This document shows, in pieces, positions 2,070-58,990 of a stretch of 64,000 nt of DNA. The notes under the pieces are model-generated. The model was not told where the DNA came from and ran no database searches. It saw only the letters and a program-made list of their open reading frames with translations. How positions within the stretch are numbered: position 1 is the first letter of the stretch; each line of letters begins with the position of its first letter. This DNA is from Blumeriella jaapii (Eukaryota > Ascomycota > Leotiomycetes > Helotiales > Drepanopezizaceae). The translations under genes and the position numbers were made by a program. The stretch is from the NCBI GenBank assembly GCA_009599575.1, contig VWND01000073.1, positions 1,488,001 to 1,552,000 on the forward strand. Direction: 5' to 3'.

Positions 2070-2336
2070 TGTAAAAGTAGGTAGGAAAACCAGACTGATA
2101 CGGCCACATATCGGTGGGTAAGATAGTCTAGGGAATTCCTAGAAGAGACTGAAAAAAGGAAAAGAAGAATGAATAAAGGTATGAATTGGACTGCGTGCCT
2201 GCGGTATTATTTAAAGGAATGTTTTGCTTTTATACTTGTTGAAAGTAGTTAATGGCAAAGGGTTTCGGAGGAGTTTATGCCTCGATTATAGCTAAAATTA
2301 TTAACTTTTATTAATACAAAGTATTACCGTTTTATA
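2070..2336 (-). repeat. B1 3' LTR (relative to gag-pol)
   Basis: 267 bp, TGTAAAAG to TTTTATA. Its outer part (about 2070-2190) is almost unmutated while the inner part has many C-to-T and G-to-A changes relative to the LTR at 14920-15186. The final ACA has become ATA. A third copy of this LTR sits at 48985-49251. Confidence 0.85.
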
Positions 2337-4884
2337 TCCTGTTTTAAATAATATACGTAGTTGTTTCTGATTACGACCAAAAAAAAACATAATTTTAATA
2401 AATGCAATTTAGTTTATTTTATATGATTTAAAAACTAATTAATTAAAACCGAACTTTTTAGCTCCATATTTCTTCGGTTTTTTAATCCGTTTTTGGCTTT
2501 TTTGCTATTGGCTTCTGCGGAAGGGTAGCGTTTCGCTTGTCGTTTGAATTATTTTGTTTATTTTGTTTTTTTGAAAAATGGCTCGATAAAATATCAGTCG
2601 AAGTATCGTTTAGATTTACGAACGTTTTAATAGTTTTTTCGTCGATAATATTATTAGGCGTCGCAGCGACGGGTGTTTTTTACGATTTTTCTTCGTAAAT
2701 AATAGATTTCAGCTTCTGAACGTGGTCTTATGTTTTGCAGAAAGCGCTGAAAAGTTTTGTGTTGAAATCGTAAAAGTAGTCGACTAGTTCGTCGTAATTA
2801 AAACCGATTAACGTTTTTATTTCGCGTAAGACTGATGGGTCGGATTACGGTTGTTTATCGACGAATGCTTTTGAAAAGGCTTCGAGGCCTGTAAAAAAGA
2901 CTATTTTACGAAATGGTTCGGAAATAGTCGTTTGCAATCGAAACTACCGAAGATGCTGTGATTGCTTCCGCCGCAGTACAGATAGTATTAGATTGCTTAT
3001 CGGATTGTCGTTTTCGAAGTAGTTTTTGTATTTTTGCGCCGTATAATTGTTCGAATAGATTAGTATTGCGCCGTCGGTTTTTTAGGTTCTGAATCTGACG
3101 AAGATTTTTTGCTTAGTCGAAAAGCTGACAAAAGTTATTTTATTTTTTATTTCGTAATTTTCGGTTTTATAATCCGATGAAATAGCTAAGGCCATCGCTT
3201 TAAACGCGCTGAAATACGAAGAAGCTGAGCTTTTTTAGGTGGTTTTAATTAATTTGGCGTCGTGGTGTAATTGCAGGTAAGTTTCGATTATTTCCGAGTT
3301 GTATGCGAGAGCAGACAGAACGTGATAGTCGAGAATGGCGTCGGTAAGGTTTTCGATTTTTTTTTTTTTCTGAAGGTCGGCGATATCGAATTTTGTGATT
3401 GTAATACGGTCGGAATCAGCGAGGCTTGAGGCGATCGGAACGTTAGAATAAACCACGAAGCGGCAGTTTTCGAGATTCCGAATAATCAAAGCAGCGAAGT
3501 AAAGGCCGGGGTGCATTTTAAAAGCTTGTTAAATAAAACTGTAAAGCATATTAGCGAAGAAGACTATAGGTGCTTCTTAGGTTTTAATCAGTCGAAAATA
3601 ATGCTTATATATAACTACTTTTTTTTTTATAAAATGCAACAGTGGTTTGTTTTTTCCGTTGTGAAATTTTACGTAATTAATAAATTCGCAGCTTAATTCA
3701 GGTAGACTTTAAAGCACTTTTTCGGTCGAAAAGCCAGAAAAGTCGGCTTTTGAAAATATTCGTTGCTTTCATTTTTCCACGTTTCAGTCGAGTTTTATAA
3801 TCGCGCTAAAAGCTTTAGGATTTGCTTTAAAGTTTGCGTAGCTTAGGTAAGCTTTAGTACGCGCTTAAGTAATTTTCGCAGTTTTTCGTCGGAATATAAA
3901 TTGGTTATTAAAATTAATTTCGAATACGTCGTAGTCCGAATTTTTGATAGCAGCGAATCGATCAGCGAAGCCGATAATATTAACTTTTTTTATAATCAAA
4001 TCGCAATACGCCGCGTAATAGCGTACGTGGAAATGGCAGAATTTGCCGTTTTTTTTGGCGTTGACGTTATTTGTAAAAACGAAATTAAGAAATCGAAGTT
4101 TTTCAGCGAAGGAAAGTTCGAATAAAAACGGGTTATCGTTTTTAAAAGTTTTTTTTATTTGCTTTGGCGTATTATACTTGCAGTTTTCCGAAAGAAGCTT
4201 GGTTTAGTTTTCGTTCGAAGCAAAAGGGAAAAAACTGACGGATTTATTTGGTTTTTGTGTAAAAGTATCGAAATAGAATTTTTAAATTGTTTCGTCGTCG
4301 AAAGCGAGAGTTTTAAGTAAAATAATTTGATTTTGTGCTTTTTGTATAATTTTTCTCGCGATAATTTCGATATTTTTTTTTAGGTTTTTTCGGTCGAATC
4401 GCGCAATGGTCGAGATTTTAAATGCTTTTATTAAAGTTTGAAATATTAGCGGTTCGACGTTTTTAAACGTAGCAAGCGTTTTTGATGTTTGCGTGTTTAG
4501 TTTCGAAAAGTCAGATTCAGGGTCGTTTAAATCTTTTTTTTTCGGAATGTTAAAGTTTTTTAAGTTTGATTTTATAGAATCGTCGCGTTTTCTGTTAATT
4601 AGCTTAAAGCCTGTAGCTCGGCGTTGATTTCCGGCTGTTTTTATTCGCGGTGCTTTTTTTGTTGGCGACGCGAATGGTTTTTTTTTTCGAACAGAAAAGG
4701 TTTCGGAAATATCGGCGCGCTTTTTTACGTTTTTTGTTTTTATTTTTTCCGGAATTGTATTTATAAATATAATAAGTTTTTTGTATTCGAGTAAGCGGTT
4801 ATTTGTTATTACGCTTTTGGTTTCGTTTTCGGATTCGTTTTCGACAATTGAAAATGAAAATCGTCGAATTGTTTTAGCTGCTTT

Positions 4885-5056
4885 TGTAACGGCCCGGCCT
4901 TTCGGCTGTTCGGCTTTCGGCTATTCAGCCTTCCGTTACATTTCTGGCGTAGCGCCAGGGCCAGGGGGTTCTACAGTGTATATAGTTCGCCCTGGGAGCT
5001 TCCTTCCTTTCAGCTCTTTGTCTGTATCTTAAGGGAAATATATGAGGTTCGTCACA
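4885..5056 (+). repeat. C1 5' LTR, 172 bp
   Basis: TGTAACGG to CGTCACA. It has internal short inverted and direct repeats of a CGGCT(G/T)TTCGG kind at the start and a TATATAG box-like stretch at about 4979. I see no mismatch to the 3' LTR at 6533-6704. No convincing tRNA primer-binding site follows it. Confidence 0.88.
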
Positions 5057-6061
5057 CTATACAGACCCTTCGTTCGGAGTAACGTCGTATTATTGATTAT
5101 TGATTATTGATTATTGATTTATTGACTTTATTGATATTGGTTCATTGATTTATTGGCTCATTGATTATTGATTATTGGTTATTGGTTATTGCCCCTTTTA
5201 TCGACTACAACTCTCGCCATTATATTGTTTCCGGTGTATCCGACCTTTCGCACCATTCTAAACCACGAAATTTATTGTTTCAGGCGCTTCCGATCAATTG
5301 CGCCACCAACCTACCTACCTTCTATTACTACGATTATTGCACCTTTTCGTACGCTACCGCCATACTAGCGTGCACTGCCTTACAATACTTCAATACGACT
5401 ACTCCCACCGATAACTTGGTGCTTCCGACCCAAAAGCACCCCCGACAGCTACTACAGCACCAACCTCCCCTTTGTTTATTCGATTATTCATTCGTTTTTC
5501 TTTCTAAACTAGCTACGTCATAGCTATGTTTACACCACTTTCTGAACAGCTCTGCCAGTTCTATTCAATTACGAATGCAACAACAACGCACTTTGGAATC
5601 TGAGCAGCAGCTTGAAAATCTTCAATCTTTTTCTTCGAACCGGCGATCTTTACCGAAAATCGTCGGCCCAGGCCGTATTTACCCGATCCTGACAATTTCG
5701 GTGGACCCTGGAAATCCAGTCAAACTTTTGTTACCCCTCAAATCGAAAGTTTAAGTACGAATCGACCTTTCGGATTGGTTTAGCCGATCCGATGAAAAGG
5801 CTATTCCGGGGCTATATGGATTCACCTACCACCAAGCTTGCATATTGCACTTTTGCAACGTTCAATTGGTTCGAGAAATCGGCTTAGTCAATTTCGGCCC
5901 TTTCAGTCAATTCGGCCCTGCCAATTTCGGTCCCTTTTTCTTCAATTCGGGCCAGCCCGGCCTTAGCACCCCTCGGAACGCCCTCGCAACTTTTCTAGGA
6001 TAATCGGTATGCGTACGAAATACACCGACCCGCCGGCTAACGTTACGACGCTGGCGACCTT

Positions 6062-6537
6062 ATGAAAATTACGCAAATCGAAAAGCGCGAACGAGAAAAG
6101 CTCGAACGTATCGATAAGCTAGGAGCAATTAAGGTTTCAAAAGCATTCAACATGTATAAAACTTTAATTCTAGAGCAGAAGGACCCAGTTCTGCCTAAGG
6201 CTTTTATTTCGTCGATAGCTCAAAGAGAGGCTTGGGACCGTACAATCAGTTGCACCAATTTCAGACCCGCCATTGCTTTGAGATTCTGAAAAGCAAGCAA
6301 TTGGCTGCAATAGGTTTGTTCGGCCAAAAGGATCAGGCTGAAATTCAGGCTGCACTGGCTGAGGAGTTTCGGACGGTTCGGAGTAGGGTTTTCAGTAGTG
6401 GTTTTCTTTCACTCCTTTATTCTTTGATTGCAATTGCAGTCGTTCGTTCGTTTATTTCATTTCGGTATGCCGAACCTTCGGTATTTTCTGTACAGTCAGC
6501 TGGAGGCCAGCTTTTTTCGGAGGGGGGGGTAGTGTAA
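6062..6537 (+). pseudogene. C1 gag-like interior remnant
   Basis: Two overlapping open pieces (6062-6289 and 6232-6537) in different frames carry charged, helix-forming text (KREREKLERIDKL) and end at the polypurine tract. Upstream (5.65-5.9 kb) the frame is broken several times but gives text such as GLADPMKRLFRGYMDS. I read this as a truncated structural-protein gene. No zinc knuckle and no enzyme motif is visible. Confidence 0.35.
6519..6532 (+). other. C1 polypurine tract
   Basis: A run of purines (CGGAGGGGGGGGTAG) sits directly against the 3' LTR of C1, where plus-strand priming is expected in LTR retrotransposons. It is intact, in keeping with the young look of the element. Confidence 0.7.
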
Positions 6538-6704
6538 CGGCCCGGCCTTTCGGCTGTTCGGCTTTCGGCTATTCAGCCTTCCGTTACATTTCTGGCGTAG
6601 CGCCAGGGCCAGGGGGTTCTACAGTGTATATAGTTCGCCCTGGGAGCTTCCTTCCTTTCAGCTCTTTGTCTGTATCTTAAGGGAAATATATGAGGTTCGT
6701 CACA
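6533..6704 (+). repeat. C1 3' LTR, 172 bp
   Basis: Second LTR of C1, identical by eye to 4885-5056, followed at once by the GCTTT target duplication (6705-6709) and then B1 sequence. Confidence 0.88.
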
Positions 6705-7560
6705 GCTTTGGGAATATTAATTGCTATTGCGTGTGTCTTTTCGAATTGAACGAAAATGATATTAGCTTTTTCGTTTCGTCGTCGTAAGTTTAAAACGTCG
6801 GGATGGCGTCGTTTTTTTCGTTCGGTATAAAAATGCCGCATTTGGCGACGCTTAGTTTTTTGCTTTGAAAAAAAATTAGATTTAAAGTTTCGCAGCCGAT
6901 TAAAACTTTTTCTGGCGATTGCATAGCGTCGTCGATCAGTTTGCAAACAGCTGTAAAAAGGCTTGTGAATCTGCGGGCTTTTGGGTTGTTAGCTTTTAAA
7001 GTTTGCGCTTTAAAAATATAAGCGTTTAGTATTCAAATTTTTTTTTTCGTAGGAATAATGGTTTCGAAAAAGCGAGCGAAGTGCCGAAATGGAATAATAC
7101 CGGTGATTTTGCTAAGAACGTATTTTTGGATATTTTTTTCTCGTTGATTTAGCAAAAAGCGCAAAATCCGGTTTGTCACCTTTTTTTTGTTATTTCGAGC
7201 TTTTTTTGCTTCGGCGAAGGCTTTTGAAGCGTTATCGTAATTTAGCAGGAATTTGTCGTAATTAAAGCTTTTGCGAACGAATTTAGCTTTAACGAAGCTT
7301 TCGTAATCGAATAGAAATTCGTTGACGTTTTTAGTTATTATATCGAATTGTTTTATAAATGTTTTTACGAAAACTGCTTATTGATTTAAAATGGCGACAT
7401 TATATGCTTGCTTAAATTCGGAAAGGTTGCGTATAATGGTTCCGTTTTAAAATAAATTAAAAATGAGTTTGCCAGGTTTGGCAACGCTTTGCTTAGGAAA
7501 CGATATGATATCGATGGGTTTGTTAATCAAAAGGGTATATTGTGTTTATTAAAAAGTAGC

Positions 7561-8100
7561 TGGAAAAAAGTACGGGAATTATAAGATATTTATATTTAAA
7601 AGTTACGGGGATTCGCATGCTGTTTTTCTAATAAATTATAGCTGTTTAGGCAGGCATTCGTTCAGAATAACGAAAAAAGTAAACAGTACAGAAAATAGCA
7701 AATAATAAAATATATAAAAAATAGTTTTCGTAAAGTGTGCGAGCAATATAAATGTATTAAATATGCGGCTTAAATATATATAAAGCTTTTGTTTTAGTAA
7801 ACAAAAGTACAGTTAAACAAAAAAAAGTACAATAAGTGTTTTAAATAATATAAAAAAAGGTTTTAAAAATAAATAGTATATATGGAACAGAATAATTAGA
7901 TTGTATATAAACAAAACAAAATAAGAACAGTAAAGCAGTATATAATAAAAAGGAAAATAATGAATAATAAAAACAATAAAACAGTTAGTACAATTTTGTA
8001 TGTATTTTTCTTTTTTTCGGTTATAAATGGAATTACGATTTAAATTGTGCTTTTAATAGCGGGGTTATTATTCGGTTGTTTCCAGACTTTTCCAGGGGTT
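7561..8100. other. B1 non-coding spacer between integrase and third ORF
   Basis: A-rich stretch with dense stops on both strands, no open frame and many short runs such as ATATAAA. It separates the end of the integrase-like text from the start of the third open region. No other structure is seen. Confidence 0.5.
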
Positions 8101-8149
8101 TCTTTTTTTTTAGAAGTATAATCGTTTTGGTCGGAGTCGTCGTCGGAGT

Positions 8150-9400
8150 CGCTGGAATCGGAGTCGCTGTTTGATTTAAAGTCCAAAGGGTAAATTTGCT
8201 GGTTTTTTCTATAAAATCGTTTTAATCGGTTGGCGGCGAACGTTTTTTTCAGTTTTGTTTTATCGAATTCCGTAAATTTGTAATAGCTTTTATTTAACTC
8301 GGCTTCGTATATTTCGTAAGGTCCGAGTTATTTATAATCAAGCTTAATGTCGGCCGATTTGTCGATAGCGCGCTAAACGTCGTAAACTAAAATCAGATCT
8401 TTTTTTTTAATTAGCGTTTTTTTTAAAATCTTGGTTTTATTTCAAACTTTTTTAACTGCTTTTTTATATCTTTTTTTTTTTAGGATTATTTTTTTTATAT
8501 TTATATCGCGGTAGTCTAGCTGTTTAGATTTTATTGCCAGTAAATCAGCTTTCGTTTTTATTTTAACTACGTTATAAAGCTTTTACACAAGCTATTTTGT
8601 TTTAAAAACAGTCGAGCGTTTTTGCCGTATTAAATGAAAAATAGGATTATTCCAGTGGAAGCGTATATGCATATGCGCATAGCAAAAAATATTTCCGAAA
8701 ATTTCCGCGATTAACGCTTATAGCCTTTTCGAATGGTTTTTAAAAGGCCGTTAAGAATATTCTTATAATTTCGTTTTACGGATCCGTTGCTTTTCGAATT
8801 ATAGGCTGAGATTTGAATGCGTTGGATTTCGTATTTTTTTATAAAGGTTTTAATAACGTTTTTGTTTTCGGATTTATTATCGACGTTTAATTTGCTAAAT
8901 AAACCGTGTCGATAAACAACGTTTTCTTAAAAAAAGGTCGTTATAGCTTCGGAAGTAGCGTTTCGAAAAAGTCGCTTTTTAGGCTATTCAGATAGATCGT
9001 TAATAGCGAATACGAAGCATATATAACCGCGATCGGTGGTTGGCACGCGTATAACGTCGAGGTTAATTTTTTCTTATATTTCAAAAGATTACGTCGGATA
9101 TAATAAGTTTTTTTTTCGGCCAGGTTTTCGTTTTTAGCAAGGAATGCAATTTTTAACGAAGACTTTGCAGTTTTCGAAGCATTTTTTTTATTAAAAGTCG
9201 TTTTTGGTTCGGTGATAAATGGCTTTAGTTTTTTTATAAAACACTTTTTCGTAAGCTTTTTTTATAATTTAAAACTTATCGGTTTTATTATTTATTATTA
9301 AGCGTTTTTGATATATATTGTTTTTTATTTTATACAGCTTTTTGTCGGCCAAAGTATAATCGAAAGCTTGGTTTTTAAATAATTTGAATTAATAGTTTGA
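8150..9400 (-). pseudogene. B1 integrase remnant
   Basis: Minus-strand decayed integrase. Near 8.2-8.35 kb the text reads LGPYEIYEAELNKSYYKF followed by FAANRLKRFYRK, which resembles the C-terminal domain of Ty3 integrases (GPY motif, then RLKPF-like). The catalytic core should lie at about 8.5-9.3 kb but is too stop-ridden for the three acidic residues to be assigned. Confidence 0.6.
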
Positions 9401-9699
9401 TACGCTAGATGGTTTAAATAAAATGGTTAGATAGTATGCGATTGAATAAAAATCGTCGGTTTTGTAATTATCGATCAAAAGTTTATTTTCGTCGCTAGTC
9501 GGCTTATTTCGATCGTTTTCGGTTAAATTTATTCGCGGTGTTAATCGAGATGATGACGCGAGTGCTTTTTCGGCTCGAGAATTAATGTTTTTTATTCGCG
9601 GTGCTAGCCGAAATAGCAACGCGAATAGTTTTGGCTTTGTAAAACCCAAAGCGTAAATAGCGAAGCAGCCGATTTCGTTAGCAATTTATTCGTTAATAT

Positions 9700-11540
9700 T
9701 TTATTCGTTTTATTTAGCGAAGTTAAACGGATAAAAGCGTTTTCGTTTGGAAAAGCCGTTTGCCGCTGTATTAGTTGTTTTTTTAATATGTTTAATTTCG
9801 AAGTTTATAAATCGTATTTAAGCTATTTAGTTAGTAACGAACGCTTTTAATAGATTATTGGTTTTTTATTTAATTAGTCGATAAGGATTTTTGCGTTTGT
9901 TTTTAAAATAAAATATACGCCGTACAATTCGCTTTTTATTTTTTTTATTGCTTTAAAAGCGCTTCGATATTTTCGTTTGATGATATCGTAGCGTGCTTTC
10001 GCGAAGGATTATAGGCCGTTTTCGAATCGTAAAAAATGTCGTTTTTTGTTTTTATCGATTTGTTGCAATACAGTTTTTTAACCGAAAATATTGGCGTCGA
10101 TAGTCAGGATAATTTTTTCTGCGTTTGGGCTGTAGTCGATCCGCATAAGCGATGGGGCCGATAAAAGGTCGTTTTTAAAGATTTTTATAGTTTTGCTTTG
10201 CTTTTTTTCCTAAACGAAATCGATTTTTTTTTTTATCGTAACGTAAATAGGTGCGGCTTTCTGAAAGAAGTTTTTGATTTAATTGCGGTAGTAAATCATA
10301 ACGCTAATAAAAGTTTTGGCTTCGGTAATATTTTTACACTTTTTTTATTTGCAAATCTTTTTAATTTTTTTTCGTTAAGGGTGGCGGCTAGCGCTGTTAG
10401 TTATATAATCAACGATATTTATTTCGGATATATAGAATTTTGATCGAGGGCCAATAGTAGCTTTGGTTTTTTCGAAGTAGACTATGATTTTGTCGATGTT
10501 TTAAATATGTTTTATTATATAACGTCGAATTTTAGAAAGAATTTTTTTATTATTATAATATAATTTGAGGCTTTTTATTTCGACGTCGTTAACGTAAGGC
10601 AAAGTAATGTCGGGGATGCAAGTTATAAGGATTTTGTATACGATTTTTACGAATTAAGCGATTAAATTGGTGGCTTCTATAAGTATTTTCGTTATACGTA
10701 ATAGATCGATTGGAATTTGAATTGCTGTTATATTTCGAGATCGTAGATTAAGTATTAAATGGTCGTAGCCGAAAAACAGATCGAAAAGGGAGGCGATCGT
10801 TAATTTTACGAATTCGTTTGAAAATTGGTCGACGTTGGGTGGCACGTTAGCGTTTCGTATCGTTATTTTGTTTATTTCGACGATTGCGATGATAAGTCTG
10901 TAAATGCTTTTTTTTTTTTTCGCAACGATGAATTATTTGTTTTTGTATGGGCCGTAGCAGAATTCGAAGATTTTTTGTTTGATTCGCTTTTTTAATATTT
11001 CGATTATTTTATTTTGGAAGGCTTTGGGAACTGAAAAGGTTTTTTTTTGCCAGGCTTTATAAAACACGGTTTTGATATCGATATAGGACGTAACGTTAAA
11101 ATTGAATTGGCTTATTTCGGTGAAATCGAAGGCTATAGCTTTTTTTCGGTTGCGTAAGATTCGTACAAAACTTTTTTCTTTTTTAACAGGAATTGGGTTT
11201 CGATTGCTAAATTATTAAATCGTTTTTTTGTAAATCGGCTGCTAGGTGATAGACTGGAAAATCGGCCGGTGATAAGTTTTTCGAGCTCGCTAATAATTAA
11301 TTAGGATGGTTTTGTTATTTTATTTTTTTCAAACCAATCGTTTATTTTTTCGGAAATATTTTTATCGGATTCGCTAAGATTTACGAATCGTATTTTATTA
11401 GCTTTGCGCTTGTAAAAAATGCTGATATTAATATAAAAAAGTAGAATATATAGGTCGGATTTGTTTAATACGAAAACGAAATCTTCGGAACTTTTATTTT
11501 CGAGTTGATAGCTAAAAATATTAATATTGGCCAATTTCAT
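9700..11540 (-). pseudogene. B1 reverse transcriptase and RNase H remnant
   Basis: The minus-strand text around 10.65-10.85 kb reads NVDQFSNEFVKLTIASLFDLF and, further on, ITLPYVNDVEIK, where the RT catalytic pair (VDD in this fungal Ty3 group) has become VND. Around 10.0-10.17 kb MRIDYSPNAEKIILTIDAN marks the start of RNase H, with its first Asp still present. The order RT then RNase H then integrase on the minus strand fixes the coding sense of B1. Stops interrupt every domain. Confidence 0.75.
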
Positions 11541-11699
11541 TCGCGGTGCTATTTCGATTAATAACGCGAATGCTTTTGGCTAAGTGTTTTCCAGGTTTTG
11601 TTATAGCTTAGCGTTTGTTTTAGAATCAGAGCCGGTTATTCGTTTTCCGATAAAACGTCGATTAAAAAGATTTTATCGCCGGCGACGGTAATTTGATTT

Positions 11700-12060
11700 T
11701 AAAAGAATCGGTTCCAGTTTTAAAAAAAGGTTTTTATTTGGCCGTTTTCGATGTATTTAAAGCTGACGAAACTCTTCAGAATTTAAGGCATTTCAAAAAT
11801 AATAGAATAAAAGTATTTTTTTATTATTAAAAAGTTTTTATAAATAATAATATTTTTAACGTCGATTTTTATATTTCGTATAATTTTATTAAATTTAATA
11901 ATGTTTTTATTAACGGTAGTATAAATTATTCGCTTATTAATAATAATCGGGATATTATTGATTTCGGCTGTTTTTTGGTTTATGCAATTGATTTCGGCTT
12001 TATTATCGAATAAAGCGAGGGCTGTCGTGCTTTTTTTAAGTATTGTTTTTATTTTTGGCG
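11700..12060 (-). pseudogene. B1 retropepsin remnant
   Basis: At about 11.99-12.02 kb the minus strand reads ALALFDNKAEINCINQKTAE, the position of the D-(S/T)-G-A active-site loop of retroviral-type aspartic proteases. The Asp and the following A-E survive, the S/T-G pair has become N-K. It lies between gag and RT as expected for Ty3. Confidence 0.6.
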
Positions 12061-12889
12061 CTTTTATAGCCGTGTAGAGGCAGTTTCGTCGTTTTGATTT
12101 TTAAATTTTTATAACGAGGGCCAAAAGATTGACTTTTTCCAAGGATTTTTTCCTATCGGCTAAATTGACTGCGGTGTTGTAAATTTCTTTCTAGTTTTTT
12201 TTTAATTTAAAGTCGTTTTTTTTTCGAATAATTTCAATTTTTTCGTTTTTTTTTAATGCAGAGATTTGTTTGTTAATAATTTTGTCGAATTTTTTTTTTG
12301 TGCTGAATAGATCGTTGAATTTTAATTTAATTTTTTGTTTTATGATTTTTTCAATGGTTTCGTCGACTGTTTCGGGGCTAATATATTTGTCGATTTATTT
12401 TTCGCTTCGCATTAATAAAGGGCGCTTAGAAGCTGGTACTTTTTGAATGATTTGGATCGGAATGTCGGTGTTAATATTTTTTATATCGTCGTTAATTTCT
12501 TTTATTATAAGCGTTTTTTTAATGATTTTATCGGTTTTTTTTCGAATTTCAAAATCTTTTTCTTTTTCGATTCTGACGTTTTTTTTTACGTTTATTAGCT
12601 TGGCGAATAAGACAAAAGCATTTTGTTTTTTTGTGGTTCGCTGGCTTGATTGTGCAGCTATAATATCTGCAGATGCGATATTTGTATTAGCAATATATAT
12701 ATTTGATTTTTATTTATACACTTGGATTTTATTTACGCTTAAAATAAAAGTTTTTTTTTTGATTAATACGCTTTTTGGAATGTTTTTTTTTTTATTAATA
12801 AAAATCGTTTTCGCATTCTTTTTGTTTTCTAAGTAATCGTTTTATTTCGTATCTTTTATTTTTAAGCAAATAGTATTTAATCAGCTTTG

Positions 12890-14919: not shown

Positions 14920-15186
14920 TGTAAAAGTAGGTAGGAAAACCAGACTGATACGGCCATATATCGGTGGGTAAGATAGTCTAGGGAATTCTTAAGAAAGATT
15001 GAAGAAAGGAAAAGAAGAATGAGTGAAGGTATGAATTGGACTGCGTATCTGCGGTATTATTTAAGGGGGTGCTTTGCTTTTATATCTGTTGAAGGTAGTC
15101 AGTGGCAGGGGGTCTCGGAGGGGTCTATGCCTCGACCATAGCTAAAACTACCAACTCCCATCAACACAGAGTATCACCGTTTTACA
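14920..15186 (-). repeat. B1 5' LTR (relative to gag-pol)
   Basis: 267 bp, TGTAAAAG to TTTTACA. The half facing outwards (about 15060-15186) keeps its GC-rich text (for example GGGGTCTCGGAGGGGTC), whereas the same stretch of the LTR at 2070-2336 has lost it by transitions. Confidence 0.85.
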
Positions 15187-15199
15187 GTATAACATCGTA

Positions 15200-16920: not shown

Positions 16921-17189
16921 TGTGACGATTCACTCTGTTGCCATTTCTCGTGTTTCCCCAGCAACTACGTATAGCTGCAAGCTTCCTGGTCTCCTGGTGG
17001 GTCTTCCTATCAATTGTGAAAACTATTTATATATATAAAGCTTTCTTTTTTTAGCAACTTCTGCCTTTTGCAGTTATTGATTCTAAATGAATATCTTTGT
17101 TACAAAACCAAAGGTTCGTTTTTTATATTATATAAATACGGCGACCAGTTGATTAATTTTCCAGCCTTTCGATTAATTAAATTATTATA
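16921..17189 (+). repeat. A2 5' LTR, 269 bp
   Basis: Begins TGTGACGATTCAC (near-intact) and ends ATTATTATA where the partner LTR has ATTATCACA. A TATATATATAAAG promoter-like box is at about 17028-17040. Confidence 0.85.
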
Positions 17190-21340: not shown

Positions 21341-21599
21341 CATTTAGCGCCTGCAAATCCTTTTTCGAGCCGATCAGATTAATTATCGCTTTTTAATTAA
21401 AAAACTTCGATTTTCTACGGTTTTCGAAACAGCTGTTTTTATTATTAAAATAGCTGATCTTTTTTTCGTATTCCGTATTATTAATTAAATTTTCCACGCT
21501 AATCGCATAGCTAGCAGCTTAATAGCCTTTCGAAAAGAAGCTGTACGAAACGCTACGAAAAGGAACGACGATAATAACATTTCGTTTTCGTATATATTT

Positions 21600-23087: not shown

Positions 23088-23356
23088 TATAACGATTTAT
23101 TTTGTTGCCACCTTTCGTATTTCCTTAGCAATTACGTATAGCTGCAAGCTTTTTGGTTTTCTGATGGGTTTTTCTATCAATTGTGGAAATTATTTATATA
23201 TATAAGGCTTTTCTTTTTTAGTAATTTCTGTTTTCTGCAATTATTAATTCTAAATGAATATTTTTGTTACAGAACCAAAGGCTCGTTTCTTATACCATAT
23301 GAACACGGCGACCAGTTGACTGATCTCCCAGCCCTTCGACTGATTAGATTATCACA
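23088..23356 (+). repeat. A2 3' LTR, 269 bp
   Basis: Starts TATAACG (decayed from TGTGACG), ends ATTATCACA. The last roughly 85 bp (from about 23270) are undamaged, in contrast to the inner part. A purine-rich stretch (GGACGGGAAAATAA) precedes it at 23076-23087. Confidence 0.85.
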
Positions 23357-23818: not shown

Positions 23819-24115
23819 TATAACGATTTAATTAATCGAAAGGCTAGGAGATTAATTAATTAGTCGCCGTGTTTACATAATATAAAAAACGAGCTTTTGG
23901 TTTTGTAACAAAGATATTTATTTAGAATTAACAATTGCAAAAGGCAGAAGTTGCTAAAAGGAAAAAGCTTTATATATATGAATAGTTTTTACAGTTAATG
24001 GGGAGACCCATCAGAAGACCAGGGAGCTTCCAGCTATACGTAGTTGCTGGGGTGCTTGCAGCTATACGTAGTTGCTGGGATGACACGAGAGGTGGCAACA
24101 GAATGAATCGTCACA
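23819..24115 (-). repeat. A1 5' LTR, 297 bp, with a 28-bp tandem duplication
   Basis: Same LTR as A2 in inverse orientation, 28 bp longer because 24026-24053 is repeated at 24054-24081 (core AGCTATACGTAGTTGCTGGG). The outer part (about 23990-24115) is undamaged, the inner part decayed. GGTAT follows at 24116 and should recur at the other A1 end outside the window. Confidence 0.85.
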
Positions 24116-24270
24116 GGTATTTTTGTACGTTCGCTATTTATTTTTCAGCTTACGTATCGTTACACGGTATGTTTTTGTAACTCGAGTAAGTTGAATATAA
24201 CGTCTTATTTATTTGAAATATTATACTAATTATTGGATTTGCAATTATCAAGTTTTTCAATCGGTTATAA

Positions 24271-47889: not shown

Positions 47890-48424
<535 letters not shown>

Positions 48425-48745: not shown

Positions 48746-48984
48746 TGTAACGGCCCGGCCTTTCGGCTGTTCGGCTTTCGGCAATTCAGCCTTCCGTTAC
48801 ATTTCTGGCGTAGCGCCAGGGCCAGGGGGTTCTACAGTGTATATAGTTCGCCCTGGAAGCTTTCTTCCTTTCAGCTCTTTGTCTGTATCTTAAAAGAAAT
48901 ATATAAGATTCGTCACACTATACAAACCCTTCGTTCGGAATAACGTCGTATTATTGATTATTAATTATTAATTATTAATTTTAT
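48746..48984 (+). mobile_element. Element C2: 5' LTR and start of interior, cut by B2
   Basis: LTR 48746-48917 (172 bp, same length as C1) and 67 bp of interior with the CCCTTCGTTCGGAATAACG text of C1, then the B2 LTR. The first roughly 115 bp are almost identical to C1; from about 48855 on, transitions appear (CTGGAAGCTTTC, TTAAAAG). The rest of C2 should lie beyond B2, outside the window. Confidence 0.85.
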
Positions 48985-49299
48985 TGTAAAAGTAGGTAAG
49001 AAAACCAGACTGATACGGCCACATGTCGGTGGGTAAGATAATCTAGGGAATCCCTAGAAAAAACTGAAAAAAGAAAAAGAAAAATAAGTAAAAGTATGAA
49101 TTAAACTGCGTGCTTATAATACTATTTAAAAAGGTGCTTTGCTTTTATATCTGTTGAAAGTAGTTAATAGCAGAGGGTTTCGAAAAGGTCCATGCCTCGA
49201 CTATAGCTAAAATTACCAACTTTTATTAATACAAAATATTATCGTTTTATATTTTGTTTTAAATAATATACGTAATCGTTTTTGACTACGATTAAAAAA

Positions 49300-51043
49300 A
49301 ACATAATTCTAATAAATGCAATTTAGTTTATTTTATATAATTTAAAAATTAATTAATTAAAAACCGAACTTCTTAGCTTTATACTTTTTCGGTTTTTTAA
49401 TCCGTTTTTGGCCTTTTTACTATTGGCTTTTGCGGAGAAATAGCGTTTCGCTTATCGTTTAAATTATTTTATTTATTTTGCTTTTTTAAAAAATAGTTCG
49501 ATAAAATATTAATCGAAATATCGTTTAAATTTACGAACGTTTTAATAATTTTTTCGTCGATAATATTATTAAATATCGCCGCGACGAATGCTTTTTACAA
49601 TTTTTTTACGTAAATAATAAATTCCAGCTTTTAAACGTGGTTTTACGCTTTGTAAAAAGCGCTGAAAATTTTTGTATTAAAATCGTAAAAATAATCGATT
49701 AATTCGTCGTAATTAAAACCGATTAACGCTTTTGCTTCGCGTAAGATTAATAAATCGGATTACGATTGTTTGCCGACGAATGCTTTTAAAAAGGCTTCGA
49801 AGCTTGTAAAAAAAATTATTTTACGAAATAATTCGGAAATAATCGTTTGCAATCGAAACTACCGAAAGTGCTGTGATTGCTTTCGCCGTAATACAAATAA
49901 TATCAGATTGCTTATTAAAACGTCGTTTTCGAAATAATTTTTGTATTTTTACGCCGTATAATTATTCGAATAAATTAATATCGCGCCGTCGGTTTTTTAG
50001 GTTTTAAATTTAACGAAAACCTTTTGTTTAATCGAAAAGCTGATAGAAATTATTTTATTTTTTATTTCGTAGTTTTCGGTTTCGTAATCCGATAAAATAG
50101 CCGAGGCTATTGTTTTAAACGCGCTGAAATACGAAAAAGCTGGGCTTTTTTAAATGGTTTTAATTAATTTAGCGTCGTGGTATAATTGCAAATAAGCTTC
50201 GATTATTTTCGAATTATATGCGAATGCAAGCAGAACGTAATAATCGAAAATAGCGTCGATAAAATTTTCGATTTTTTTTTTTTTTTTAAAAATCGGCGAT
50301 ATCGAATTTTATAATCGTAATACGGTCGGAATCAGCGAAACCTAAAGCGATCGGAACGTTAAAATATGTTATAAAACGGCAGTTTCCAAAGTTCCGAATA
50401 ATTAAAACAGCGAAGTAAAGGCCGGAATGCATTTTAAAAGCTTATTAAATAAAATTGTAAAGCATATTAGCGAAAAAAGCTATAAGCGCTTTTTGAGTTT
50501 TAACCAGCCGAAAATAATACTTGTATATAACTATTTTTTTTTTATAAAATATAATAATAGCTTGTTTTTTCCGTTATAAAACTTTATATAATTAACAAAT
50601 TCGTAATTTAATTCAGATAAATTTTAAAATATATTTTCGGTCGAAAAGCTAAAAAAGTCGGCTTTTGAAAATATTCGTTATTTTTATTTTTCTACGTTTT
50701 AGTCGAGTTTTATAATCGCGTTAAAAGTTTTAAAGTCCGTTTTGAAATTTGCGTAGCCTAAATAAATTTTAATACGCGCTTAAATAATTTTCGCAGTTTT
50801 TTGTCGAAATATAAACTGGTTATTAAAATTAATTTCGAATACGTTGTAATCCGAATTTTTAATAGCAGCGAATCGATTAGCAAAGCCGATAACGTCGATT
50901 TTTTTTGTAATTAAATCGTAATACGCCGCGTAATAGCGTACGTAAAAATGGCAGAATTTGCCGTTTTTTTTAGCGTTAACGTTATTCGTAAAAACGAAAT
51001 TAAGAAATCGAAGTTTTTTAGCGAAAAAAAGCTCGAATAAAAA
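49300..51043 (-). pseudogene. B2 copy of the family-B third open region, 3' part
   Basis: Aligns with B1 2390-4130 on the same strand. More stops than B1; no open frame over 60 codons is left. Useful mainly for aligning with B1 to infer which changes are decay. Confidence 0.55.
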
Positions 51044-51456
51044 TGTCAGGAACCAATATCACGTGTATAAGTCAGATGATCCGCCAAGACCTTCTGTCTT
51101 TTACCAATCCTCGAATAGTATTTTCTGCGGATAGACCGTAGGGGCCGGATAATGCTGTGGAGGCTGGAAATAATATTTAAATAAAATATTTTATAAAAAT
51201 AATTGCTAAGAAACCAGTTATTAGAGTTATATTAAGAAAAATAAAAAAAGGTCGGGATAAAGGCTAAAAAAGTATATTAAATAAAATTCGCCTGGTTTTC
51301 TGAAAAATACTTTTTTCGAAAGCTTTATTTTTTCTTTTGTATTTATATACGCTTTTTATTAAAAATATAAAAGATAAAAATCAATTTAATTATTAACCCA
51401 ATTTTATTTGAGTTTTATTATTTGAATTAGTGTTTTTCTGTTTTTTAATTCTTACA
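51044..51456 (+). repeat. D1 5' LTR, 413 bp
   Basis: First roughly 130 bp intact (TGTCAGGAACCAATATCACG, GGGGCCGGATAATGCTG), then strongly AT-shifted. Confidence 0.87.
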
Positions 51457-51699
51457 TTCTGATTTTTTTATTTATCGGAACGGCAGTTCGATATTATTAA
51501 AACAATCTTTTATTATATTATTATATTTATATCGTTATTATCGATATTATAGCTTTTCGCATTCGCAGCGAATAAGCATTTTCAGCTATTTAAAAAGATT
51601 CAGCGCTTTCGGCTGTTTAAAAAAACCTCGTATTATCGTCCCTTTTGACGTTACCAGTTTTATTAAGAATCGAAAATACTCCATTATCAAAACGCGACG

Positions 51700-53130
51700 A
51701 CTTTCCAACTTTTTCTATCGAAAAAATTATTAAAAAAGGCCACGCTTAAAACAATTCGAAAAAATCTTTTATCGAAACTTTAATTTATCTGACTGATAAA
51801 CGAATCCGCGCCGAATAAAAAAAAAACGATAAACGTAAAAGAATAAAAAAAATACGAATTAAAAAAAAATAAAAAAAAATAAAAAAAAAAATCTACGAAA
51901 TAATCAAAAAACTCGAAAAAACCAAAAAACGCCGAAACGAATTCCGAAAAAAGATTAAACAATTTCAACGAAAATTTAACGCTTTCGAAAATATCGAAAA
52001 AAAGGTTTTTATATTTTTTAATATCGCTTCAATTAAAAAAAAAACAGAAAATAATTTAAGCCGGCAATTACTATAAGATATCTTCGAAGCATTACGATAA
52101 TAATATTTATTAAAAACGATTTAACATTTTTTTTTAAATATATTATACTTTTTGTAAAAAACATAGCGAATTCGAGCCGAAAAGCATCAAAAATAAAAGA
52201 TTTTTTAATATATCGAAAAAAAAATACTAAAAAAGCTTAATTTTTTATTCGGCGTGCAAAGCGAAGTTTCCGCCAAGATAAAAAAGTAATATTCTATACT
52301 AATTAAAAAAAAATTAACGCCTGTGTTTTAGCTTTCGACGATAAAATAAAAAGAAAATAAACCAATACGAACGACGTTTTACGAATATTCGAATTATATA
52401 AAACGATTTTAAAAAATAAATATTAGACTTTCTAATAAATGCGAAAAATCGAAAAATCGCGGCTTCGAATTTATACGATAAAGCGAAGCAAAAAAAATAT
52501 AAATTAATTAACGATTTCGTTGCTTATTTAAATAATTTCGAATAGCAGTTGCAAATAATAAACGATGCGATTAAAAAAAAAATGCTTTTCGCAAAATTCC
52601 GATTTATTTTTCGAAAAAAAATTATTAAACGAAGCAATACTGCAATTATAAATTCGCATAAAAAATTAATATTAATCGCTCGTCGTATCGAAAATGCTAA
52701 TAAAATTATCAACGACGAAACGAAAAATAATAAACGACGAAACGAGCGTAAAAAAAAAAAAAAAAAAAAAAAGATTTATATTTACGATTAAAACTTAAAA
52801 GCTAAAATAAATATATACCGTTTTCGATTCGAAAATACGTTATAAAAAAAAAAACGAAAGCGAAAAAACGATAATTCTAACAAAATCCTTTGGAATTCTA
52901 GAATTTTTAACGATTTTTTTTACTTTTCGAAATATAATCGCTGCTAAAAAAAAAAGCATCGCATAGCCAATTGTTTAAAAATCGAATATTATAAATATAA
53001 TAAAAAAGAATATATAACTTTAAACTGTCCCGAAGCTAATAAATCTAAAAATTCGGGAAAAGCTTCCGCTCGATTTTAATTTCGTTGCTGCTAATAAAAT
53101 CGAGCAAAAAAAAAAAGCAGAAAATAATAA
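51700..53130 (+). pseudogene. D1 gag remnant with destroyed zinc knuckle
   Basis: Lys-rich decayed gag. At 52981-53034 the text EYYKYNKKEYITLNCPEA stands where a CCHC zinc knuckle (C-x2-C-x4-H-x4-C) is expected; both first Cys and the His are now Tyr, and only the last Cys remains. TGT-to-TAT and CAT-to-TAT are exactly the changes made by the decay seen elsewhere. Confidence 0.65.
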
Positions 53131-53149
53131 TTTTAATCGAAATTAAAAA

Positions 53150-55020
53150 AGTTATAAGCGAAATTCGTACGAAACGAGCTTTTATCGACTGCGGCGCGGA
53201 AAAAAATTGCGTAATCCAAAAGTTATTAATTAAATATAAATAAAAACCAATTTAAAAACGTATTAATTTATTTACGATTAAAAAAAAAAAAGTAATTATT
53301 TACGGCACGCATACGCAATTTATTCGCGCTATTAATAATTATAAAATAATTAAAAAAATACAAAGCGATTTCGTGGCTTGCGATATAAATATTCTAAAGG
53401 TTTTATTTATTTTAAAATTCTTTTGGTTGCGAAATATCGACCCCGTTATAAGCTTTCGAGCTAAATCGTGGCGATATTTAATCGAACGCTTACAGCTTAA
53501 TTTCGTTATAATTAAACGTTTTAAAAAAAAATCCAAAAAAAAACAAGCGTTTTGTATCGTTTTAAAAAAAGCTACTGAAAAACAGCATTAATTACCTTTT
53601 AAATACGACGATTACGCCGACGTGTTCGACGATACCGCCGCGGTTATCCTAGCTTTTTATTATTTTATAAAGCATCGAATAAATTTCGCGAAAAAAAAAA
53701 ACCTTTTTTAAAAACTAATTTATTTTTTATCGGAATTTGAATTCACCGAATTACGCGAATATTTCGATTCGAGCTTAAAAAAAAACTGGATAAAAAAATC
53801 TATTAACCTTGCCGGCGCACCGATAATATTTATACCGAAAAAAAACGGAAATTTACGATTATACGTCGATTATAAAAATCTAAACGCAATTACGGTTAAA
53901 AATCGAACTTTTTTATTTTTTATAAGCGAAATTTTGGATCGTTTGAAAAAAGCTAAAATATTTATTAAACTAGATTTTATTTAAGCGTACCATCGCCTTC
54001 GAATAAAAAAAAAAAATAAATAAAAAACTGCGTTTCGCATTCGTTACGAATATTTCGAATACTGCGTATTACTTTTCGGCCTTTCGAACGCATCAGCAAT
54101 CTTCCAAGCGTATATTAATTAAGTTTTAGTCGGTTTAATAAATATTACGTGTATAATTTATTTCGACGATATTTTAATATTTTCCGAAAACTCCGACGAT
54201 TATATAAACGCGATAAAAAAAGTTTTCGAAAAACTTCGTATTAATAAATTTTACGAAAATCTGAAAAAATATATTTTCGATACAAATACGATTAAGTTTC
54301 TAAGCTTCGTCGTTATTTCTACGAGAATTAAAATAGACCCAAAGAAAATAAATAATATTCGGAAATAGCCCCTTTTTATTACGTAGCGAAATATTTAAAT
54401 ATTTTTAAGTTTTATTAATTTTTATAAACGTTTTATTAAAAACTACGCTAAGCTTTGCCGATTTATTACAGATTTTCTAAAAAAAATGCAACGAAGAAAA
54501 ATATCGGGCCTTTTTCGTTTTCTATTCGAAGCGAAGCTCGCTTTTTTACTTTTAAAAGAAAAGTTTTACTAAGCACCGATTTTACGTTATTTCGATTTTC
54601 GATTAAAAATCCAAATCGAAACAAACGCTTCGAAATTCGCTATAAGCGGAATATTATTTTAATTATTCGAGAAAAATGCGAAGGCACGTTAGCATCCTAT
54701 CGCATATTATTCGAAAAAGCTTTTTTTTATAAAACAAAAATACGAGATTTACGACGCTAAGCTAATAGCTATAATTTACGTTTTTAAATAATAAAGCTAA
54801 TATTTACGTAGCGCTTCCGACGTTATTATTATACGTATAAATTATTATAATTTAAAATACTTTTTTACGAAAAAACGTTTAAACGGACGCTAAGCGAAAT
54901 AGGCCGACGAGCTAGTTAAATACGATTTTGCAATCGAATATAAAACAGAAGTTTTTAATCCGGCGGATAATCTTTTTCGCCGGCCAAATTTAAAAGAAAA
55001 TTTAAAAAAAATAATAAACA
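53150..55020 (+). pseudogene. D1 protease, RT and RNase H remnant
   Basis: Protease: TRAFIDCGAEKN at about 53.18 kb (D-C-G-A where D-S-G-A is usual). RT: IPKKNGNLRLYVDYKNLN (about 53.83 kb), FIKLDFI, then CIIYFDDILIFSEN (about 54.16 kb) with both catalytic Asp still present, and INFYKRFIKNYAKL. RNase H follows at 54.5-55.0 kb. Many stops. Confidence 0.72.
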
Positions 55021-55399
55021 ATTATTTACGTTATATCGTAAACTAAAATTAGCTTATTTAAAAAATTTTAAAATGTTTTTCGCAATAAAAACACGCCTAA
55101 AATCAAAGCATAAACCATTTCGCGCCGATTAGTATTCGAAGCTTTTGTTAACGAAATTAAAAAATAAAAAGCAAGCGGAAAAAAGCCAAATAAAAAGCTT
55201 TTTCGCCGGATTATTTTTTGCTAATATTATTAATTGCAAATAATATATACTACGAAGCGTAGCCGCTGTATTATTATAATCCGAAACGGTTAATAACGAG
55301 CTAGCAAAACCGATTTATAAAACTATTTTTAAATTGCAAAAATCTGATTTTTTTATATTATAAAAAACGTACGAATCGGCCTCGCAAAACAATCGAGCC

Positions 55400-56760
55400 G
55401 GATTCGAAAAATATTAGCGTATAAATTAAAATAAATTACTACGTTACAAAAAACGTACGTATATTCCGAATAAAAGCGTTATTAAAAGCGAAATATTAAA
55501 AATTAATTACGACGATCCGACCGCCGGCTATTAAAATTTTCGGCGAACGCTAAAACTGGTCGAAAAAAGTATTTCTGGCCTGGTTTATAAGGCGACGTAA
55601 AGCGTTACGTTAATACGTATAAAAAATACTAAAAAAGCAAATTTAAAAAGCACCGATTTTATAGCGAATTAGCTTTTTTTTCGATTTTTACAAAATTTTA
55701 AAAAAAAAAATTATAAATTTTATTACGAATTTATTTTTTAATAAAAAACGAAATCGTATTTACGATTCGATATTCGTTATAATAAATCGATATACGAAAC
55801 TGTCGAAATATATACCGATATAAAAAACGATTTCAGCCCTAGATTTAGCTAAGATATTTATATAATACGTTTACAAAAATTTTGGCTGTTTTAAAAAAAT
55901 TATTATAAACAAAAAATTAGTTTTTATTAGTAAATTCTGGTTTTTAATAATATTTTATTTATAAATACAACGTCGATTAAACACCGCTTTTTATTTTTAA
56001 ACCGATAGCCAAACGAAACGTTAAAATTAAATTTTAAAATTTTATTTTCGCACGTATTACGATTATCGACAAAACGATTAGGCTACGAAGCTTGCTTTAG
56101 CCGAGTTTACGTATAATAATTCGATACACGTTTTTACGGATTTTATTTTTTTTCGCATATTATACGGCTTTTATTTAAAACTTGGCAGCAACGTCGAAAG
56201 CGACGTCGTAAAAAAAAAAATACCGTCAGCGAAAAAACGAATTAAAATATTACAAAAAAAAAAAAAAATATTTAATAAAAAGCTAAAAAAAGCCAACGCG
56301 AATTATAAAAGGTTTTACGACGCTAAATACAAAAAAACTAAATTTCAAATAAGCGATAAAATATTATTATCGATTAAAAACCTTCGATAGCTGCGATTTT
56401 TTCGAAAGCTTTTAAATAAATATTTAAAACTTTTTAAAATTAAGCGAATTATATACAAGCACGGCTAAGTTTATTAATTCGAGCTTTTTTTTTAATATCG
56501 TATTTACGATATTTTCTACGTTTTCTTATTAAAACCTTAGTAAGGTCGGAACGATACCGAGCCGAAAAATAATATAATAAAATTTTAAAAACCCGAAAAA
56601 TATAAAATTAAATTAATATAAATTTACAAAAATACAAAAAAAAAAACCGATATTATTTAATGCGATAAAAAAGCTATTTATTAAGCGAAAACTTTTAAAA
56701 GCCAAAAAACTATTTTACGAACGCAAAAAAAAAAATTATAAAAAAATATTTAAAAAATAC
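55400..56760 (+). pseudogene. D1 integrase remnant
   Basis: Decayed text in the place of integrase; the C-terminal end near 56.34-56.45 kb (FQISDKILLSIKNLR) matches the DKVLLSTKNLR-type motif of Ty3 integrases. A following Lys-rich tail may be a former chromodomain but is too damaged to call. Confidence 0.55.
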
Positions 56761-56849
56761 GATAAATAATAACAACGGAATAACAACGAATACGCGTCGT
56801 AAAAGCAAAAAAAAAAAAAAAAAAAAACATTTAAAAAATTTTAAAACCG

Positions 56850-57702
56850 CCGCTAAGCTAATTTATTTTTATCGTTATTTTTTTTTTTTATTTTTTTCGC
56901 TATTTTTTTTTAAATTCGAAAGCAGCGGCAAATTAAAAAAATTAATATTAAACGAATTTGCAAAATATTCGATTTATTTTAATTAAAGCTTTTATAATAG
57001 CCGTAATCGAATTTTAAATTGCAATTACGATATTTTCGTAAAAATCCAGAATTTAATTTAATTAATTAAAATAAATCCGAACGACGTTTTCGAAACGTCG
57101 AAAAATACGTTTTATATTAGCGTCGTTAAAAAAAAAAGCCGGCGCAGCCAAGACTTTTAAAACAGCAGCAGCCGCCAAACCGGCAAAAACGGACGCAGCA
57201 GCAGCAGCGGCAGCCCGAGCCGCGGCGCGATTCGTACGATTTTCGATTATTATAAAAGCCGAAGCGTTACTTTTTTTTAAACGATTTATATAAGCGTCGT
57301 AAATAATAAAATCGATAAAAATTTTAATAAAAGCTTTGGCTTCGGCAATAAAAAAAAAAAAAACGGCAGCGGCGATAATAATATCGAAACGATTTATAAA
57401 ATCGTTAAAATCCGCGAAAAGTATTTGCGCTTCGGTAGCGCGTGCGGCAAAAACTTATAGTTAATTAAAAGCGAATTCGAATAAAAATCTAAAAGATTTA
57501 TAAAAAAGTATTAAATATACGAAGCTTTACAGCGGTTGCATTTCACGCTGAAAAGCTCGAAAACGCAAAAAAACAAAAAGGCCGTTATAATATTTTCGCG
57601 TAAAATCAAACGGGCGCACCGAAAGCAAATAAAAATTAAAAGCATTTTAAAAATTCGCGGCGAACGCGGCGAAAAGCAATTAATTAAAAAAAAAAAAAGC
57701 TA

Positions 57703-57736
<34 letters not shown>

Positions 57737-57980
57737 AAACAGAAAAATTGCGGCCATTTTAAAAAAAAAAGCTTTTTTAAACGAAAATGCGAACGTTACC
57801 GAAAACAAAAAAAACAAAACAGTAAAACAATTATAATTCACGACCAAAAACGGAAAAAACAATTATAATTCACGACCGAAAGCGAAAAAAACCGCATGTT
57901 ATTTCGAAAGCGTAACGCACGCTATATACAAAAGCATACGTATAAAAAAATCAATCGCTTTTAAAAACCAAAAGCTTAAA
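56850..57980 (+). pseudogene. D1 extra Ala-rich, charged open region downstream of pol
   Basis: After the integrase the plus strand reads KTAAAAKPAKTDAAAAAAAR, then RFVRFSIIIKAEALLFFKRF and CASVARAAKT, and ends in a Lys/Arg-rich coiled-coil-like tail. It is on the same strand as gag-pol and ends at the 3' LTR. No family recognised. Could be a separate gene or a C-terminal extension of pol. Confidence 0.4.
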
Positions 57981-57990
57981 AAAAAAGTAA

Positions 57991-58403
57991 TATTAAAAAC
58001 TAATATCACGTATATAAATTAAATAATCCGCCAAAATCTTTTGCTTTTTATTAATTTTCGAATAATATTTTCTGCGGATAAACCGTAAAAGCCGGATAAT
58101 ATTATAAAAATTAAAAATAATATTTAAATAAAACATTTTATAAAAATAATTGCTAAAAAATCAATTATTAAAATTATATTAAAAAAAATAAAAAAAGGTC
58201 GGGATAAGGGCTGAAAAAGCATATTAAATAAAATTCGCCTGATTTCCTGAGAAATACTTTTCTCGAGGGTTCCACCCTTTTTTTTGTATTTATACACGCC
58301 TTCTACTAGAAATATAAAAGATAGAAATCAGTCTGACTATCAACCCAATCTTATCTGAGCTTTATTATTTGAATTAGTGTTTCCCTGCCTTTTAATCCTT
58401 ACA
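57991..58403 (+). repeat. D1 3' LTR, 413 bp
   Basis: Inner part strongly AT-shifted, outer part (about 58200-58403) intact, the mirror image of the 5' LTR. A purine run (AAAAAAAAAGTAA) precedes it. Confidence 0.87.
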
Positions 58404-58739
58404 AAAAACGGGTTATCGTTTTCAAAAGTTTTTTTTATTTGTTTCGACGTATTATATTTGCAATTTTCCGAAAAAAGCTTAATTTAGTTTTCGTTCGAAG
58501 CAAAAAAGAAAAAGCTGACGGATTTATTTGATTTTTATATAAAAGTATCGAAATAAAACTTTTAAATCGTTTCGTCGTCGAAAACGAAAGTTTTAAACAA
58601 AATAATTTAATTTTATACTTTTTGTATAATTTTTTTCGCAATAATTTCGATATTTTTTTCTAGGTTTTTTCGGTTAAATTATATAATAATCGAAATCTTA
58701 AAAACTTTTATTAAAATTTAACGTATTAACGGTAATAAT

Positions 58740-58990
58740 TGTTACGATCCTCCCCTGGCTAGTGGTGTGGTTGCCAGTGGTATGATTGCCGGTGGTGTTG
58801 GAATAAGGTTTGGGCACGGACCACCTCGGCCATTAGGCCTCGCGTTAAGTTACGTGACTTATAAGCGCAGCTTATTATACATAAAGTTCGCGACTCCGAG
58901 CATTTTAGCTCGGTGTTTTTTTTTTAATTTATATACGTATTTTTTGGTTTATATTATTTTTTTGATTATTCTTAAGCTAGCTGTGATATA
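58740..58990 (+). repeat. E1 5' LTR, about 251 bp (end uncertain)
   Basis: Repeated GGTGTGGTTGCC / GGTATGATTGCC motifs at the start, then an abrupt switch to AT-rich text after about 58910. The 3' boundary is a guess from a TGTGATATA end. Confidence 0.6.

What the first reader, a model, noticed from the sequence alone, without database searches (positions are those of the whole stretch)
2070..58990. Outer ends of every LTR element are spared while interiors are destroyed
In all seven insertions with a visible end, the outermost roughly 85-200 bp keep GC-rich, undamaged text and the transitions start only further in: B1 (2070-2190 and 15060-15186), A2 (16921-17030 and 23270-23356), A1 (23990-24115), C2 (48746-48855), B2 (48985-49075), D1 (51044-51170 and 58200-58403), E1 (58740-58910). 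Because the two LTRs of one element are the same sequence, the left LTR is intact where the right one is ruined and vice versa. So sequence content is not the cause; distance to the insertion edge is. This is what a mutator needing homology on both sides, or a fixed minimum match length, would leave behind. It could give a measure of the pairing length of the RIP machinery in this fungus.
Basis: partly seen in the sequence, partly recalled or inferred. Interest (0 to 1): 0.85.

Follow-up and report, generated by a model that had tools for sequence, protein, structure and literature searches.

The report
Mutation spares transposon outer edges
In this fungus the process that riddles repeated DNA with C-to-T mutations leaves roughly the outermost hundred bases of each retrotransposon largely untouched, so the two originally identical ends of one element are damaged in mirror image, which may serve as a natural ruler for how the fungus recognises repeats.

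Summary
The two LTRs of an element start out identical (recalled), yet both carry their damage at the inner end. I compared 30+30 LTRs of family B, 20+21 of A and 20+20 of D, found through internal sequence so that edge state did not choose the copies. Inner damage exceeds outer damage in 141 of 141. Shuffled left/right labels never reproduce the mirror pattern (0 of 5000 for each family). At non-CpG sites damage is 11-14% within 50 bp of the edge and 46-56% beyond 200 bp. Half-rise lies at 84 (A), 93 (B) and 166 bp (D): graded, not one fixed step. The best explanation is a RIP-type mutator whose action fades near the end of shared homology. That cause is inferred: clear solo LTRs, truncated copies and non-LTR ends could not be tested. 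The host side of junctions is not spared. Centre-weighted RIP is known from Neurospora constructs, while in Zymoseptoria new RIP mutations pile up at LTR ends. Six searches showed me no report of mirrored LTR pairs.

The parts
2070..2336 (+). B1 left LTR (267 bp): outer part spared, inner part damaged
   Evidence: 0/32 outer, 17/42 inner
14920..15186 (+). B1 right LTR: outer end intact, inner end only lightly damaged
   Evidence: 2/42 outer, 3/32 inner
16921..17188 (+). A2 left LTR (268 bp)
   Evidence: 2/43 outer, 14/37 inner
23089..23356 (+). A2 right LTR
   Evidence: 2/37 outer, 16/43 inner
23826..24116 (-). A1 LTR, outer end at 24116 next to gene-rich DNA; A1 appears to hold A2 and B1 as nested insertions (inferred from matches)
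   Evidence: 2/43 outer, 12/34 inner
48746..48984 (+). C2, start of a C element, interrupted by B2; light G>A damage from about bp 111
48985..49252 (+). B2 left LTR
   Evidence: 3/32 outer, 16/42 inner
51044..51455 (+). D1 left LTR (412 bp)
   Evidence: 5/46 outer, 18/35 inner
57992..58403 (+). D1 right LTR
   Evidence: 3/35 outer, 24/46 inner
58740..58985 (+). E1 left LTR (about 246 bp, length judged from partial copies)

Best explanation
The elements are LTR retrotransposons mutated by a RIP-type process (C-to-T on both strands, in repeats) after each copy had inserted. The process acts where copies share a long stretch of homology and fades near the end of that stretch. Each insertion has its own flank, so homology to other copies stops at the outer LTR end, and about the last hundred bases there escape most of the damage; the inner LTR end has the element body beyond it and is hit. 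Shown: mirrored damage, dependence on position rather than sequence, a graded curve, different insertion sites, no sparing on the host side. Inferred: that loss of pairing at the homology boundary is the cause, and that this is RIP in the strict premeiotic sense.
For: Mirrored damage in the window and in 141 of 141 LTRs of three families; 0 of 5000 label shuffles reach it in each family. Similar damage by distance to the outer edge in A, B and D despite LTRs of 268, 267 and 412 bp, and the D LTR middle is damaged on both sides. Both C and G columns are hit (inner 75 bp 0.56 and 0.43). 60 B junctions lie at different sites: a single flank pair aligned up to the junction. LINE copies differ by 72-146 transitions and 0-1 transversions (15 pairs of 6 copies). 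Precedent: in Neurospora constructs mutations lie near or around the centre of the repeat (PMC4858203, passages).
Against: No direct test of homology. Half-rise is not constant (84, 93, 166 bp) and the two sides differ in B and D. Left/right comparison alone cannot tell distance to the outer edge from distance to the LTR/internal boundary. Host flanks are damaged right up to the junction, which needs the further assumption that hosts were mutated before the insertion. The C family, 1.8 kb and 48 first-look candidates, is little mutated in the part I saw. In Zymoseptoria new RIP mutations are commonest in the outermost windows of LTR elements (PMC10294615, passages).
Confidence: 0.72

Rival explanations
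1. Damage starts in the internal region and leaks outward into LTRs that are not recognised themselves; what counts is the distance from the LTR/internal boundary.
For: Paired comparison fits equally well (likelihood 8120.8 against 8121.1, mirror-image models). With strict columns the leak looked similar in A, B and D.
Against: With relaxed columns D, with its longer LTR, is damaged at 150-250 bp from the outer edge about as much as A and B at that distance, and its middle is damaged on both sides. Columns that are wholly A/T are invisible, so this is moderate evidence.
Confidence: 0.14
2. The mutator follows the transcript (RNA-guided or transcription-coupled). The outer part of the left LTR (U3) and of the right LTR (U5) are not in the genomic RNA (recalled) and would therefore survive.
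For: The spared parts are of the kind missing from the RNA; the zones damaged in both LTRs could be R.
Against: Damage is graded and per-copy changepoints scatter over 61-253 bp in B instead of stopping at one transcript end; A, B and D follow similar curves by distance; both strands are hit. None of these is decisive and no RNA data were available.
Confidence: 0.08
3. Sequence content: the LTR ends are GC-rich or poor in targets, so the pattern is compositional.
For: CpG sites are almost never hit (22/917 cells) and composition varies along the LTR.
Against: The same columns are damaged when inside and spared when outside; the permutation test with CpG sites left out gives 0 of 5000 in each family.
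Confidence: 0.02

Closest known systems
RIP in Neurospora crassa repeat constructs (PMC4858203; passages)
   Same: Mutations tend to lie symmetrically near or around the centre of the repeat; recognition integrates over several hundred bp.
   Different: Engineered repeats of a few hundred bp; here natural elements of several kb, boundary fading read from LTR pairs, and a non-CpG rather than CpA-dominated context.
RIP on the LTR retrotransposon crapaud, Podospora (PMC10787394; passages)
   Same: LTRs of full copies are RIP targets; solo/fragment LTRs mostly keep high GC, which the authors attribute to small size.
   Different: GC per LTR; no inner/outer or left/right comparison in the passages I saw.
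De novo RIP in Zymoseptoria tritici (PMC10294615; passages)
   Same: Uneven distribution of C-to-T changes along LTR elements.
   Different: Opposite: the outermost windows (5% of TE length) hold 35% of new mutations in TEs, mostly in LTR elements.
CpA/CpT signatures in Botrytis and Sclerotinia, with RID/Masc1 genes (PMC4352252; passages)
   Same: Targets other than CpA alone.
   Different: Here CpC is also hit and CpG is almost exempt.

Membership tests
RIP | C-to-T and G-to-A transitions, almost no transversions, in repeats | tested here: met
   LINE copies 72-146 transitions, 0-1 transversions per pair; A, B and D have 327-768 first-look candidates with the internal queries and C and G columns are both hit
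RIP | CpA preference, usual in ascomycetes | tested here: not met
   CpA 0.43, CpC 0.35, CpT 0.50, CpG 0.02; other contexts are reported in some ascomycetes (PMC4352252), so I call the process RIP-like
RIP | RID/Masc1-class cytosine methyltransferase in the genome | tested here: inconclusive
   DNA_methylase matches at three loci; homologues found for two, class not assigned
RIP | Action in the premeiotic sexual phase | not testable with these tools
   needs crosses
RIP | Length threshold: short repeats escape | tested here: inconclusive
   no clear solo LTR found; the 1.8 kb C elements are little mutated in the part seen
Homology-edge effect | Damage rises with distance from the repeat's own boundary, independent of sequence | tested here: met
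   0 of 5000 shuffles in A, B and D
Homology-edge effect | Constant boundary length | tested here: not met
   half-rise 84, 93 and 166 bp
Homology-edge effect | Also at ends of non-LTR repeats and truncated copies; absent where flanks are shared | not tested
   LINE 3' end not reached; the two broken LINE copies were hosts of D and A insertions

The most novel reading that the evidence does not exclude
The mutator does not read DNA homology at the edges at all but follows the element's transcript: the two LTR parts that are absent from the genomic RNA are the parts that survive. RIP-like mutation in this fungus would then be guided by RNA or transcription.
Probability: 0.08. Interest if true: 0.9.

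Novelty: new variant of a known kind. Interest (0 to 1): 0.62.

Why it matters
How RIP machinery finds homology without recombination is an open question, studied mostly with engineered repeats in Neurospora (recalled). Paired LTRs offer many natural, internally controlled experiments per genome: the same bases at two distances from a boundary. They yield a curve (half-rise about 85-165 bp here) that a pairing model would have to reproduce and that can be compared between fungi. It also warns against dating insertions by LTR divergence, or measuring RIP from LTRs, in such genomes, because left and right LTRs differ largely by damage at opposite ends.

Tried and rejected
Rejected: 'the middle of the D LTR is spared in both copies', which I noted after and withdrew; it came from requiring at least 70% ancestral state on one side. 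The 141 of 141 count uses such strict columns and compares different columns within each LTR; the side-neutral test is. Rejected: separating outer-edge and inner-boundary models by paired likelihood (mirror images). Family C as a short-LTR test: little mutated in the 20 copies fetched (83-91% identity; the 98% copies were not fetched), so uninformative. Middle LTRs of tandem elements: the two candidates (L050, L054) were B elements inserted into other B copies; their outer 67 bp held 7/29 and 2/29 damaged sites, against 0.09 on average, so L050 is a poor example of sparing. Solo LTRs: one candidate (L040), with a left-LTR-like pattern and not a clear solo. LINE truncations: the two broken copies are hosts of D and A insertions; L173 is less damaged near the break than further in, but so are the six uninterrupted copies at the same columns, and L174 is not less damaged near the break. 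LINE 3' end: not within the 506 bp fetched from two copies. Other repeat families in the first 68 loci: 90% of bases, the B copies themselves included, match the window, leaving small groups. DNA transposons: 5 DDE_1 matches, not followed.

Rows dropped. Family A: L116 not located; L145 in odd orientation (kept, removed). Family D: L077 and L095 not located (38 of 40 used, plus the window pair). For A and D I fetched 20 places per side of the 40-41 listed; for B the 30 best-ranked per side of 41 and 40. Sampling favours copies like the window's internal sequence. Columns that are A/T in all copies cannot be seen.

Full report
What is there. The window is bases 1488001-1552000 of contig C71 in a 47.4 Mb, 91-contig genome. 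One cytosine methyltransferase piece has its best listed match in Cadophora gregata (65% identity over 80% of the query), which suggests an ascomycete of the Leotiomycetes; that placement is an inference. A gene-rich block lies between two AT-rich blocks made of nested LTR retrotransposons: A1, apparently holding A2 and B1, on the left; C2, B2, D1 and E1 on the right.

Check of the observation. Aligned base by base, the two LTRs of B1, A2 and D1 differ almost only by C/T and G/A, and the damage is mirrored: each LTR is damaged mainly at its inner end. Counting window LTRs against family columns agrees for A1, both A2 LTRs, B1 left, B2 and both D1 LTRs; B1 right is weak, and E1 and C2 rest on few comparisons.

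Genome-wide test. I searched the genome with internal stretches of B, D and A, so that the state of the edge did not choose the copies, and compared 30+30, 20+20 and 20+21 left and right LTRs, the window's own included. In all 141 the inner part is more damaged than the outer part (60 of 60; 40 of 40; 41 of 41). The stronger test is per column: the same position is spared when it lies outside and damaged when it lies inside. Shuffling left/right labels among copies never reached the observed statistic (0 of 5000 for each family; one odd A copy removed).

Shape and length. With CpG sites left out and columns chosen without regard to side, damage is 0.11-0.14 in the first 50 bp and 0.46-0.56 beyond 200 bp. 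The half-rise is 84 bp in A (bootstrap over copies 83-101), 93 in B (91-94) and 166 in D (136-167). Separate sigmoid fits with CpG sites included gave 62 (left) and 101 (right) for B, 83 and 77 for A, 282 and 183 for D. The rise is graded; per-copy changepoints in B scatter from 61 to 253 bp. One fixed match length is therefore not supported. I first believed the middle of the D LTR to be spared on both sides; that came from a too strict choice of columns and vanished with relaxed ones.

What the position effect refers to. Left/right comparison cannot by itself tell distance from the outer edge from distance to the LTR/internal boundary. Absolute levels favour the outer edge: D, with 412 bp LTRs, follows roughly the curve of A and B, and its LTR middle is damaged on both sides. 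This is moderate evidence, because columns that are A/T in all copies cannot be seen.

Surroundings. The host side of junctions is not spared: mean flank GC is 0.24-0.32 in every 50 bp bin out to 250 bp, with no rise towards the junction (60 B copies). In two LINE copies broken by a D and an A insertion, damage near the break is not below that of six uninterrupted copies at the same columns. Of 60 B junctions 44 lie in A, B, D or E elements, and a single flank pair aligned up to the junction. The simplest reading is that hosts were mutated before the insertion arrived.

What kind of mutator. Six LINE copies differ by 72-146 transitions and 0-1 transversions per pair over 801 bp. In LTR inner thirds damage falls on CpA 0.43, CpC 0.35 and CpT 0.50 but CpG 0.02, and less after a 5' G (0.12). 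In mutated stretches of the window CpG is 3.1 times and GpC 2.2 times expectation. This is RIP-like with a non-CpG context; CpA and CpT signatures are reported for Botrytis and Sclerotinia, which carry RID/Masc1 genes (PMC4352252, passages). Three loci match DNA_methylase, class not assigned.

Mechanism. Most likely the mutator acts within stretches of shared homology and fades near their ends; the outer LTR end is such an end because each insertion has its own flank. Shown: mirrored damage, dependence on position, graded curve, different sites. Inferred: pairing as the cause. Neurospora constructs give precedent, with mutations around the centre of the repeat (PMC4858203, passages). Kept alive: leakage from the internal region, and a transcript-guided mutator.

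Literature. Six searches showed me, in listings and in the passages I read of eight papers, no description of mirrored LTR pairs; most listed papers were not opened, and papers outside the held library may have one. The closest natural data, from Zymoseptoria tritici, show the opposite for new mutations: most in the outermost windows of LTR elements (PMC10294615, passages). The two could be reconciled if interiors there have few targets left; I did not test this. In Podospora, LTRs of full crapaud copies are mutated and solo LTRs mostly not (PMC10787394, passages). Passages of PMC7296669, PMC11969663, PMC10502011 and PMC12543289 did not bear on edges.

Verdict. A real, strong position effect; known in kind from constructs, apparently not described in this form; the mechanism is probable but not proven.

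Noticed in passing
LTR columns of A, B, D; window 7001-14900, 17301-23000, 49301-51040, 51501-57900: The mutator nearly exempts CpG (22/917 cells) and is weaker after a 5' G, while CpA, CpC and CpT are hit about alike; CpG is 3.1 and GpC 2.2 times expectation in the mutated stretches.
   Followed up: partly
4885-6704 (C1) and L149-L168: C elements (1.8 kb, 172 bp LTRs identical in C1, 48 first-look candidates, several at 98% identity) are little mutated in the first 500 bp of the 20 copies fetched, unlike the A, B, D and LINE families.
   Followed up: partly
48746-49252: B2 interrupts C2, so this C copy was there before B2, yet it is far less mutated; its 11 transitions against C1 are 10 G>A and 1 C>T.
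   Followed up: no
47885-48424: Long GTA/AGT trinucleotide array (about 540 bp, strong GC skew) at the edge of the gene-rich block.
   Followed up: no
24041-24080: Short tandem duplication inside the A1 LTR next to its outer end.
   Followed up: no
L172, L175-L181 and the places listed: A LINE family with 81 first-look candidates whose copies differ almost purely by transitions; a good object for testing edge sparing outside LTR elements.
   Followed up: partly
G000 C7:1395565-1396566, C67:526531-527531, C2:488008-488352: Three loci matching DNA_methylase PF00145; RID or DIM-2 class not assigned.
   Followed up: partly
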